This document shows positions 3,279 through 63,697 of a DNA stretch of 64,000 nucleotides, one piece after another (positions within the stretch are counted from its first letter, which is position 1; each line of letters begins with the position of its first letter). The DNA lies in NCBI RefSeq assembly GCF_037969725.1, contig NZ_CP150203.1, positions 4,356,001 to 4,420,000 of the forward strand, written 5' to 3'. The notes beneath the pieces are model-generated. The model had not been told where the DNA came from and ran no database searches. It saw nothing but the letters and a program-made list of their open reading frames with translations. The position numbers were made by a program, and so were the translations under genes. Source of the DNA: Paenibacillus sp. FSL W8-0426. Its GTDB lineage: Bacteria; Bacillota; Bacilli; Paenibacillales; Paenibacillaceae.

Positions 3279-3306
3279 AAAAAAAAGACCGCTTACATAA
3301 GCGGCC
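3279..3306 (-). terminator. Terminator of the candidate small RNA
   Basis: The stem GGCCGCTTA/TAAGCGGTC is followed on the minus strand by eight T residues. It is not followed by T residues in the other direction. Confidence 0.9.
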
Positions 3307-3363
3307 ATTGCTCATTCCGAGCAATACAGTTATTGGATAGGAGTGGAGAGAAACCATACTGTA
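3279..3363 (-). ncRNA. Candidate small RNA gene, about 85 nt, with its own promoter and terminator
   Basis: A consensus sigma-A promoter (3369-3397) points to a start near 3363 and a strong terminator ends at 3279. Between them the transcript folds into three hairpins by eye. The first has a TACAGT/ACTGTA stem closing a 27-nt loop. The second is TTGCTC/GAGCAA with a GGAAT loop. The third is the terminator, GGCCGCTTATGTAAGCGGTC followed by eight T. The large loop is C-rich (CTCTCCACTCCTATCC) and complementary to Shine-Dalgarno-type sequences. No ribosome-binding site or plausible ORF is present. It is separate from tyrA, which has its own terminator at 3442-3463. Confidence 0.7.
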
Positions 3364-3368
3364 CTTTT

Positions 3369-3397
3369 ATTATATGTATCCGTTTTCATTTTGTCAA
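3369..3397 (-). promoter_or_regulatory. Consensus sigma-A promoter of the candidate small RNA
   Basis: TTGACA, exactly 17 bases, then TATAAT on the minus strand. Both hexamers match the consensus at every position. Confidence 0.9.
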
Positions 3398-3441: not shown

Positions 3442-3463
3442 AAAAGAGGACCCGCGGGCCCCC
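3442..3463 (-). terminator. Terminator at the end of the aro-trp-hisC-tyrA supraoperon
   Basis: A GC-rich hairpin GGGGGCC-CGCG-GGTCCTC (two G-T pairs) followed by TTTT begins a few bases after the tyrA stop. Confidence 0.75.
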
Positions 3464-3466
3464 TTT

Positions 3467-4561
3467 TTATATCCATACCTGATATCCAAGCGAATCCAGC
3501 AGTGTCCGGGCACGCTCCATCTCCTCTTCCTGACGGAAAGAGAGGCGCATAATACCCGGTACGTCCACCCGGTTCTCGATGATTTCCATGTTGCTCAAGT
3601 TAATGTCATGCTTCCCGAGTTCAGTCGCGATTTTGCCGATCGCTCCGGGAGCATCCTGTACATCCGTATACAGATCGAACAACGGGGAAATCATGCCCTT
3701 TCGCCGTTCTGGCAGCACGCTGCGGAATTCGCGCGCCTCCCGGAATGCCTGCTCGATACGTTCGCCGTTATGCTCCTCCAGCATTTTGGTGAACGCCGCA
3801 ATCTGGCCATTCCAATCCTTGAGCAGTCCAAGGAGCACATCCCGATTGCTGAGCAGAATATCGCGCCACACGATGGCATCGCTGGAGGCAATGCGCGTAA
3901 TGTCCCGGAATCCGCCTGCTGCAAGCATTTTGTATAACGGATTCGATTCATTATACTCACGCACCTGATTCACCAGCGCAACGGCAATCACATGCGGCAG
4001 ATGGCTGATGGCTCCTACGATGTCGTCATGAAGCAGCGGCTCCACGCGGACGATCTGCGCCCTTGTGTATGCCAACAGCTCGGACAACCGCCCGTACGCC
4101 TCCTCGGGCACATGTGCCGAAGGGGTAAGGACATAGTAGGCGTTCTCGAAAAGCACGGCAGAAGCCGCCTCGACGCCCGCACGTTCCGACCCTGCCATCG
4201 GATGTCCGCCTATGAAGTAGGCGTCCTTCAAACGAAGATGCTCGGCGCAAGCCACAATGGAAGCCTTCGTGCTGCCAACATCGGTGATGATGCACCCTTT
4301 TTTCAACGGAAGGGCCGCAAGCTGCTTGAAATACGATTCCAGCAAACCTACAGGCACGCACAGGAAAATAAAGTCGGCATCCTTCACCGCGTCTTCCAAG
4401 GAGAGCGTGGCATCATCCACCACGCCGCTGGCTATGTACTTCTCCTTAAGCTCCGGCAAGTGGGCGTAGCCCACCACCGTCACGTCCGGCTTCCCCTTAA
4501 AGCAGAGTGCCAACGAACCTCCGATGAGTCCTACGCCGATCATTGCAATTTTACGTGTCAT
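3467..4561 (-). CDS. tyrA: Prephenate dehydrogenase with C-terminal ACT domain
   Basis: 364 residues. It oxidatively decarboxylates prephenate to 4-hydroxyphenylpyruvate with NAD, on the tyrosine branch. The N-terminus shows a Rossmann fold with GVGLIGGS near residues 8-15. The catalytic region includes the 'GGHPMAGSERAG' stretch that binds prephenate. The C-terminal part, from about residue 290, has the pattern of an ACT regulatory domain ('DLYTDVQDAPGAIGKIATEL'), which suggests feedback by tyrosine. GAGGAACC precedes the ATG. It lies 23 bp after hisC and is the last gene of the aromatic supraoperon, as in B. subtilis. Confidence 0.95.
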   Translation of the reverse strand: MTRKIAMIGVGLIGGSLALCFKGKPDVTVVGYAHLPELKEKYIASGVVDDATLSLEDAVKDADFIFLCVPVGLLESYFKQLAALPLKKGCIITDVGSTKASIVACAEHLRLKDAYFIGGHPMAGSERAGVEAASAVLFENAYYVLTPSAHVPEEAYGRLSELLAYTRAQIVRVEPLLHDDIVGAISHLPHVIAVALVNQVREYNESNPLYKMLAAGGFRDITRIASSDAIVWRDILLSNRDVLLGLLKDWNGQIAAFTKMLEEHNGERIEQAFREAREFRSVLPERRKGMISPLFDLYTDVQDAPGAIGKIATELGKHDINLSNMEIIENRVDVPGIMRLSFRQEEEMERARTLLDSLGYQVWI

Positions 4562-25684: not shown

Positions 25685-25773
25685 GATGCTTAACCTCCTA
25701 TCGCCTATGGCTCCCATAAGGAGTCTTTCTTTATTGTGAATTTTTCATCTATTGAACTTGTCATATATGATTG

Positions 25774-34629: not shown

Positions 34630-34663
34630 ACATTCCACTCCTCTTGTCCATACTTCGATACCC

Positions 34664-43894: not shown

Positions 43895-44168
43895 AGTCAA
43901 GCCAAACACGATGATGGAAAAAAGACATTGCATTGTACATTCAGAGAGCCGATGGTTGGTGCAAATCGGTGGCAGGCAAATGTTCTTGAGCGCTCCTGAG
44001 TTGCTGCGTTGAAATTGGAGTAGGTGCAGCCGGTTAAGACCCGTTAACCTCTTCGGTCTATATGACCGCTAAGACTGTCGTTGCGAAGCGACGGTGAATT
44101 AGGGTGGTACCACGAATAACTCTCGTCCCTTATTGCGCAAGCAGTATGTGGATTGGGAGTTTTTTTGA
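43895..44168 (+). promoter_or_regulatory. T-box riboswitch upstream of serA
   Basis: Stem I features are 'CAGAGAG' at 43939, 'GGTTGGTG' and the 'GGAGTAGG' segment at the 3' side. The T-box sequence AGGGTGGTACCACG (44102-44115) is followed by a terminator stem (44118-44160) and seven T. The UGGN bulge reads TGGT, which pairs with an A discriminator base. The bases before GAGTAGG read GAA-ATT-G, so AUU (Ile) or UUG (Leu) are the visible specifier candidates; a serine codon is not obvious. From 44169 to the serA start I see no gene. Confidence 0.9.
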
Positions 44169-63269: not shown

Positions 63270-63528
63270 GATGAGAGATCCGCTGCTACTAGCGGATGGA
63301 ACGTTGATACATGGGTACCCGAAAACAAAGGCTCTGCGGATTCAAGCAAGTGAAAATCGACACATGCCCAAAGATAGAATCCCCGTCAAAGCTGCAGTGA
63401 TTTCTCTAAAGTCATTTCGCATATGGTTGAAGGCAGCACAAGAAAAATTCTCGTAACTGTCTGCATTTTCGCATAACGAACAGTACCATGCACAACATTT
63501 TGCCAAACGCGGCCATAGACCGCATCCG

Positions 63529-63677
63529 CTCCTTCTCCCATCCAGACTATACTGTCGGTTCTGGAATCGCACCAGATCAGCCGTCTGCCTTGGCAAACGG
63601 GTCACGGACTTTGCAGCACGCATCATTGTGGTGCGCTGCATCACCGCCGGTAGGGAATTGCACCCTGCCCCGAAGGA
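63529..63677 (-). promoter_or_regulatory. FMN riboswitch (RFN element)
   Basis: On the minus strand the conserved parts are in order: GGGGCAGGGTG, CCCTACCGGCGGT (with one insert), AGTCCGTGAC, ACGGCTGATCTGGTG, CCGACAGT and AGTCTGGATGGGAG. FMN binding should favour the terminator at 63234-63269. The roughly 260 bases between aptamer and terminator are longer than usual. Confidence 0.95.
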
Positions 63678-63697
63678 ATGTTGTTTTGTTAATTTGG

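What the first reader, a model, noticed from the sequence alone, without database searches (positions are those of the whole stretch)
3279..3397. Undescribed small RNA candidate with consensus promoter and C-rich loop
A perfect sigma-A promoter drives about 85 nt that fold into three hairpins and end in a strong terminator, independent of the neighbouring tyrA terminator. The 27-nt loop exposes CTCTCCACTCCTATCC. C-rich loops of this kind, as in Firmicute sRNAs such as RoxS/RsaE and FsrA, bind Shine-Dalgarno regions. In this window 9 bases (TCCACTCCT) are complementary to the der ribosome site (34634-34642) and 8 bases (CTCCTATC) to that of the sugar-ABC ATPase gene (25695-25702).
Basis: partly seen in the sequence, partly recalled or inferred. 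Interest (0 to 1): 0.75.

Follow-up and report, generated by a model that had tools for sequence, protein, structure and literature searches.

The report
Catabolite-controlled small RNA of Bacilli
Next to tyrA lies a gene for a small RNA, its core kept almost unchanged across much of a class of bacteria, that appears to be switched by the cell's glucose-sensing repressor and to block production of sugar-uptake proteins; the public RNA-family library searched here has no match for it.

Summary
On the minus strand (3364-3279) a perfect sigma-A promoter drives ~85 nt ending in a terminator. It was found in 75 of 75 genus, 394 of 394 family and 294 of 296 order genomes, and at E<=1e-3 in 24 further families of Bacilli, often near hisC/tyrA. 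GGUUUCUCUCCACUCCUAUC is nearly invariant; two 3' hairpins vary in sequence. The RNA is not CsfG and reaches no Rfam gathering score. Its conserved part mirrors a ribosome site plus start codon; the closest matches lie on sugar-uptake genes: PTS lactose/cellobiose IIA here (19 of 20 bases) and in another genus (20 of 20). Der and the in-window sugar-ABC gene are chance-level. Likely mechanism: a CcpA-repressed sRNA that blocks translation of sugar-uptake mRNAs, working like RsaI. No transcript, CcpA binding or pairing was measured.

The parts
3392..3397 (-). -35 box TTGACA
   Evidence: kept with few changes in the order loci aligned
3374..3389 (-). predicted CcpA site (cre) ATGAAAACGGATACAT, filling the promoter spacer and touching the -10
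   Evidence: 1 match in window, 0.23 expected; 60 of 63 distinct promoters of the order match perfectly, 3 with one mismatch
3369..3374 (-). -10 box TATAAT
3279..3364 (-). small RNA (predicted start 3364-3362, end in the U tract 3286-3279)
3336..3355 (-). near-invariant segment GGTTTCTCTCCACTCCTATC, reverse complement of a ribosome site; its 5' extension CAGTAT complements a start codon with one G-U pair
   Evidence: mean unpaired probability 0.63-0.99 for UUUCUCUCCACUCCUAU over 50 sequences
   Evidence: formed in 3 of 9 relatives folded
3307..3325 (-). middle hairpin, sequence variable
   Evidence: predicted in 50 of 50 sequences
3279..3306 (-). intrinsic terminator hairpin and U tract
3442..3467 (-). 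terminator of the upstream gene tyrA (context, not part of the RNA)
3467..4561 (-). tyrA, prephenate dehydrogenase (context)
   Evidence: Pfam PDH_N, PDH_C; found on many of the relatives' stretches

Best explanation
A trans-acting base-pairing small RNA, ancestral to much of class Bacilli, under carbon catabolite control. Glucose-activated CcpA sits on the cre between -35 and -10 (in other lineages within the transcribed part, as a roadblock) and shuts the gene; when preferred sugar runs out the ~85-nt RNA is made. Its 5' single-stranded segment is a mirror image of a ribosome-binding site plus AUG and pairs over up to ~20 nt with the Shine-Dalgarno-to-start region of mRNAs for other sugar-uptake systems (here the PTS lactose/cellobiose IIA gene; elsewhere sugar ABC permeases and glycosidases), blocking translation so that only strongly induced operons are expressed. 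Shown: conservation, promoter and terminator sequences, cre pattern, complementarity. Inferred: transcription, CcpA binding and its sign, duplex formation, translational repression, physiological logic.
For: Conservation 75/75, 394/394, 294/296; 24 further families at E<=1e-3; hisC/tyrA on many of the same stretches. Cre: 60 of 63 distinct promoters perfect in the order, variation almost confined to degenerate positions; over all 117 named and 40 other class/order loci 115 of 144 distinct windows, shuffles mean 3.8, max 9; 104 of 133 without those bearing the order's spacer motif; earlier subset 86 of 116 copies vs 170 of 3877 background windows. Targets: AGGAGTGGAGAGAAACCATG at <=2 mismatches, 11 non-self sites in the (cut) listing for 98 genomes vs 1 for a permuted control; 41 of 60 fetched sites vs 5 of 30 control loci open an ORF >=60 aa with an in-frame stop within 35 codons upstream. 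PTS IIA of this genome: -37.2 kcal/mol vs 180 own-genome ribosome sites mean -13.8, sd 4.6, lowest -28.6. Carbohydrate uptake/hydrolysis domains in 16 of 49 targets vs about 15 of 145 own-genome genes.
Against: No RNA, CcpA or binding data. Target sites are patchy: the PTS IIA protein has a homologue at E<=1e-30 in only 4 of 75 genus genomes, own genome and a same-species one included, and in the other two the pairing is weaker (-24.1, -26.3). Strong sites also lie on AIR-synthase-like, CheR, NMT1-type binding-protein and ABC-ATPase genes. With the looser test (start codon and ORF >=60) the target/control contrast is 49 of 60 vs 15 of 30, and the 60 were picked from 68 listed for having a start codon. 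Among 80 named loci 13 show no cre, all 5 Aneurinibacillus, both Melghirimyces and the one Kroppenstedtia among them. A CcpA gene was not searched for. Blocking alternative sugar uptake when glucose is gone is not the intuitive sign, though RsaI has it.
Confidence: 0.66

Rival explanations
1. The RNA is CcpA-controlled but its main targets are not sugar-uptake genes; it is a general anti-Shine-Dalgarno RNA acting on many ribosome sites in starvation, and the sugar matches reflect the abundance of such genes in Paenibacillus.
For: Sites occur on many unrelated genes; the genome is rich in ABC permeases (7 of 145); enrichment modest after collapsing orthologues.
Against: The three listed non-self sites with at most 1 mismatch are two PTS IIA genes and a sugar-type ABC permease; invariance over 20-24 nt exceeds what a generic C-rich anti-SD seems to need.
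Confidence: 0.2
2. The conserved segment is a DNA operator or protein-binding site, and the transcript is incidental or serves to titrate an RNA-binding protein.
For: Three lineages (L092, L101, L129) carry the complement GGAGTGGAGAG or close to it inside the promoter spacer, as an inverted-repeat operator would; such invariance is unusual for sRNAs.
Against: The segment shifts relative to the -10 in L106-L109 while a terminator still follows it; hairpins with different sequences follow in 50 of 50 order RNAs; long ribosome-site complements exist.
Confidence: 0.08
3. A leader or attenuator of the downstream sigma-factor gene, or the 3' end of the tyrA transcript.
For: Same strand as both neighbours; a sigma-factor gene often follows in the order.
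Against: Own promoter and terminator, and tyrA has its own terminator; a sigma homologue was found on 7 of 20 class and 9 of 80 named stretches only; second copies elsewhere in some genomes (L241, L242, L243).
Confidence: 0.04
4. A small leaderless or dual-function mRNA (AUG GUU UCU CUC CAC UCC UAU...).
For: An AUG precedes the segment in the order.
Against: The AUG is absent in several lineages (L106-L108, L242, L243), third codon positions are as fixed as the others, and the frame diverges after the seventh codon; no ribosome site in front.
Confidence: 0.02

Closest known systems
RsaI / RsaOG of Staphylococcus aureus
   Same: Stand-alone sRNA repressed by CcpA when glucose is plentiful, blocks translation of a sugar-uptake mRNA (glcU_2) by pairing with its Shine-Dalgarno site (PMC9266662, passages seen).
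   Different: No Rfam match; RsaI has G-rich regions that bind other sRNAs, this RNA has no GGG run; RsaI is described as conserved in Staphylococcus but not in Bacilli (PMC8216469, passages).
CsfG of Bacillus subtilis (RF00516 'ylbH leader', modelled on the opposite strand)
   Same: CU-rich conserved stretches; [quoted passage not shown]
   Different: 6 of 6 genomes searched hold a separate RF00516 element over cut-off (this genome at C1:2241154-2241280, 71 bits) with another sequence; here only 19.5 bits vs 50, on the opposite strand.
RosA of B. subtilis
   Same: sRNA repressed by CcpA (PMC8216469 passages).
   Different: RosA is a G-rich sponge for RoxS/FsrA, 92-225 nt (PMC8464778 passages); this one is C/U-rich.
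RoxS/RsaE and FsrA
   Same: C-rich regions that pair with ribosome sites (PMC8216469, PMC8464778 passages).
   Different: No Rfam match; the segment lacks a CCC run; a cre instead of ResD/Rex or Fur control.
SR1 of B. subtilis
   Same: Sigma-A promoter, silent in glycolytic conditions, operator in the promoter spacer (PMC8464778 passage).
   Different: SR1 is 205 nt, its spacer operator binds CcpN, and it encodes a small protein; no Rfam match here.

Membership tests
CsfG (RF00516) | Covariance-model match above gathering score | tested here: not met
   19.5 bits (gathering 50), on the opposite strand; true match lies elsewhere in the genome
CsfG (RF00516) | Location between ylbG and ylbH | tested here: not met
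   Neighbours are tyrA and a sigma-factor gene
CsfG (RF00516) | Sigma-F/sigma-G forespore promoter | not tested
   Sigma-F/G consensus was not scanned for; a 12 of 12 sigma-A promoter is present
RsaI/RsaOG | Rfam match | tested here: not met
   No match at gathering score in the window or in 19 loci from outside the order
RsaI/RsaOG | Repression by CcpA | tested here: inconclusive
   cre predicted and recurrent; no binding or expression data
RsaI/RsaOG | G-rich regions binding other sRNAs | tested here: not met
   No GGG run in the window's RNA (sequence)
RsaI/RsaOG | Shine-Dalgarno pairing to a sugar-uptake mRNA | tested here: inconclusive
   Predicted for PTS IIA and ABC permeases, not measured
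RoxS/RsaE | Rfam match and C-run motif | tested here: not met
   no CCC in the conserved segment (motif recalled)
FsrA | Rfam match | tested here: not met
   a Fur box was not scanned for
CcpA regulon member | cre box at a position that can block transcription | tested here: met
   Between -35 and -10 here; upstream or downstream of the segment elsewhere
CcpA regulon member | Glucose- and ccpA-dependent expression | not testable with these tools
   No expression data

The most novel reading that the evidence does not exclude
The RNA is the ancestral RNA arm of carbon catabolite control in Bacilli: a segment held nearly fixed because it mirrors a whole ribosome site and start codon, while (i) the cre wanders between promoter and transcribed part but control is kept, and (ii) in each lineage different sugar-uptake genes evolve ~20-nt matching ribosome sites to join its regulon.
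Probability: 0.45. Interest if true: 0.85.

Novelty: new member of a known kind. Interest (0 to 1): 0.72.

Why it matters
A 2021 review counts five trans-encoded sRNAs of B. subtilis with identified targets (PMC8464778, passage). This one is found in nearly every genome of an order examined and in two dozen more families, has no Rfam match, and comes with a predicted signal (CcpA) and exact predicted targets, so the role of an RNA layer in catabolite repression becomes directly testable outside Staphylococcus and B. subtilis. Its conservation gives an unusually clean system for asking why an sRNA seed can be frozen while its targets turn over.

Tried and rejected
CsfG: first suspected from the CU-rich segment and its breadth; rejected because the real RF00516 element is elsewhere in the same genomes with another sequence. 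Rfam weak hits around the locus are below gathering score. In-window targets (der, sugar-ABC): chance level. RNAalifold on the MAFFT alignment did not align the terminators (6 pairs); the hairpins were instead counted per sequence, which is biased because each stem comes from its own predicted fold. Model R1, built from that weak structure, was used once, at phylum level with strict filters: 5 of 299 genomes, all of the own family; it says little about Bacilli outside the order. One search timed out and was redone more simply. One stretch (L244) was fetched at wrong coordinates and holds no copy; L256 holds no copy and L251 and L254 only 3-mismatch copies; these four do not enter the cre counts. 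Names were used for 80 of the 117; all 117 entered the later cre count.

Not done: CcpA gene search; sigma-F/G scan; Fur-box scan; target search outside Paenibacillaceae.

Full report
THE OBSERVATION. The RNA is on the minus strand. TTGACA (3397-3392), 17 nt and TATAAT (3374-3369) match the sigma-A consensus at 12 of 12 bases; a stem of 8 pairs (3306-3287) with 8 T follows; tyrA, upstream on the same strand, has its own terminator at 3467-3442. The 85-nt RNA folds at -25.2 kcal/mol, below all 200 shuffles. Rfam has nothing there at gathering score; with a permissive threshold only sub-threshold hits appear.

CONSERVATION. A DNA search with 126 bases found it in 75 of 75 genomes of the genus, 394 of 394 of the family in 19 of 19 genera and 294 of 296 of the order in 47 of 48 genera (the misses are a 1.4-Mb genome and one 81% complete). 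At class level (299 genomes) I counted, from the cut listing, 24 families outside the order with matches at E<=1e-3 that cover the segment; weaker matches in that call are at chance level. In a phylum draw of 299 genomes only 5, all of the own family, matched a covariance model under strict filters. Named carriers include Fictibacillus, Shouchella, Halalkalibacter, Pseudalkalibacillus, Aneurinibacillus, Marinococcus and Melghirimyces. Homologues of window proteins on the fetched stretches point to a shared locus: tyrA on 44 of 50 genus stretches, 28 of 30 family stretches and 15 of 20 class stretches; hisC on 54 and tyrA on 50 of 80 named stretches (stretches are 0.7 to 8 kb and not all centred, so absences say little).

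ANATOMY. Across 50 distinct RNAs from genus and family, A5 to T28 (AGTATGGTTTCTCTCCACTCCTAT) is invariant and the flanking C and CC nearly so. Outside the order GGTTTCTCTCCACTCCTATC stays while the bases before it change and its distance to the -10 shifts. Two hairpins follow in all 50, with 19 and 23 distinct arm pairs; since each stem is taken from that sequence's own predicted fold, full pairing is partly built in, but arms shuffled among sequences pair at only 0.46 and 0.56.

CONTROL BY CcpA (inferred). The promoter spacer is a perfect WTGNNARCGNWWWCAW (recalled consensus), the only one in the window. In 63 distinct promoters of the order 60 match perfectly and 3 miss one base; variation falls almost only on the degenerate positions 1, 4, 7, 10 and 16. 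Outside the order the spacer is not conserved, yet TGNAANCGNTNNCA with at most one mismatch recurs within -75 to +110 of the segment: 86 of 116 copies against 170 of 3877 windows of the same stretches (80 of 117 named loci used), and, with all 117, 115 of 144 distinct windows against shuffles averaging 3.8 and at most 9, or 104 of 133 after dropping windows with the order's spacer motif. Among 80 named loci it is upstream of the segment in 8, downstream in 46 (in the examples I looked at, in the terminator hairpin), on both sides in 13, on neither in 13. Sites between the promoter boxes or in the transcribed part normally mean repression; the sign is inference. That CcpA is encoded here was not tested.

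TARGETS (predicted). The reverse complement of the segment with its 5' extension reads as a ribosome site and, with one G-U pair, a start codon: AGGAGTGGAGAGAAACCATG. In 98 family genomes this gave 183 matches at up to 3 mismatches, about 98 of them the RNA gene itself (seen in every genome listed; the listing was cut); a permuted, Shine-Dalgarno-like control gave 44 and the reversed pattern 23. At up to 2 mismatches the listing shows 11 non-self sites against 1. Of 68 non-self sites listed I fetched 60, leaving out 8 without ATG; 49 of the 60 carry a start codon with an ORF of at least 60 codons, 41 of them with an in-frame stop within 35 codons upstream; for the 30 control loci the figures are 15 and 5. 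A weaker pattern in 16 genomes gave 44 matches against 16 for its reverse.

The best sites: PTS lactose/cellobiose IIA in another genus, 20 of 20; the same gene family in this genome, 19 of 20, -37.2 kcal/mol, in a row with PTS IIB, PTS IIC and a family-1 glycosidase; a sugar-type ABC permease, 19 of 20, -41.3; a family-4 alpha-galactosidase and a second permease, 18 of 20. Among 180 ribosome sites from 20 stretches of this genome the mean is -13.8, sd 4.6, lowest -28.6. BPD_transp_1 includes permeases for other solutes in both sets. Against: other strong sites lie on AIR-synthase-like, CheR, NMT1-type and ABC-ATPase genes, and the PTS IIA protein has a homologue at E<=1e-30 in only 4 of 75 genus genomes (own and a same-species genome included), with weaker pairing in the other two.

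MECHANISM. With glucose, CcpA blocks the promoter (or, elsewhere, elongation). Without it the RNA is made and pairs from Shine-Dalgarno to AUG with sugar-uptake mRNAs. Since CcpA commonly also represses such operons (recalled), the RNA would set a threshold: an operon must be induced strongly by its own sugar to be translated. RsaI has the same sign: repressed by CcpA, it blocks glcU_2 translation at the Shine-Dalgarno site (PMC9266662, passages).

KNOWN OR NEW. It is not CsfG, and not RsaI, RosA, RoxS, FsrA or SR1 by Rfam or by the features compared. Searches for the segment in print (0 papers), for Paenibacillus with small RNA, CcpA and cre site (0), for Paenibacillus sRNA with Northern blot (6, none on such an RNA by title), small regulatory RNA (26, 20 listed), P. 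polymyxa sRNA (57, 10 listed) and CcpA with small RNA, catabolite repression, base-pairing and Firmicutes (3) showed no description in the listings; the library lacks most subscription journals, and the CsfG paper itself was not held. As a kind it is a base-pairing, CcpA-linked sRNA, hence a new member of a known kind; its breadth and the mirror-RBS segment are the unusual part.

Noticed in passing
L092 (G557), L101 (G586), L129 (Caldalkalibacillus mannanilyticus), promoter spacers: The spacer carries GGAGTGGAGAG, GGAGTGGAGG or CAGTGGAGAGG, the complement of the RNA's own conserved segment, some tens of nt upstream of it. Unexplained; would fit an operator or self-pairing.
   Followed up: no
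L032 (G038:C111, about 30.9 kb): A rearranged partial copy of the RNA about 5 kb from the intact one, with a GATAGGAGTCTCCACTCCTATC palindrome and a similar terminator.
   Followed up: partly
L241 (G740), L243 (G708), L242 (G551): Second copies of the segment with a promoter-like stretch and a terminator of their own, so the RNA is a small multi-copy family in some Bacilli.
   Followed up: partly
L045, L047, L056, L057, L063, L064, L069, L071 and others, just upstream of the -35: A further cre-like box (such as ATGAAAACGCTTAT or AGAAAACGCTTTAAA) directly before TTGACA in several lineages; a script with a narrow window counted one with at most 1 mismatch in 8 of 63 promoters.
   Followed up: partly
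G000:C1:2241154-2241280: The true CsfG/ylbH element (RF00516, 71 bits) of this genome.
   Followed up: yes
L264, L267 (G007, G018): Genes that look like gcvT (by recall) whose ribosome site GGATAGGAGTGGA is a 13-nt complement of the RNA; other recurrent sites lie before motA-like (L270, L290) and response-regulator (L278, L281, L282) genes.
   Followed up: no
window 43902-44133 (+) and 63526-63681 (-): A T-box leader and an FMN riboswitch.
   Followed up: no
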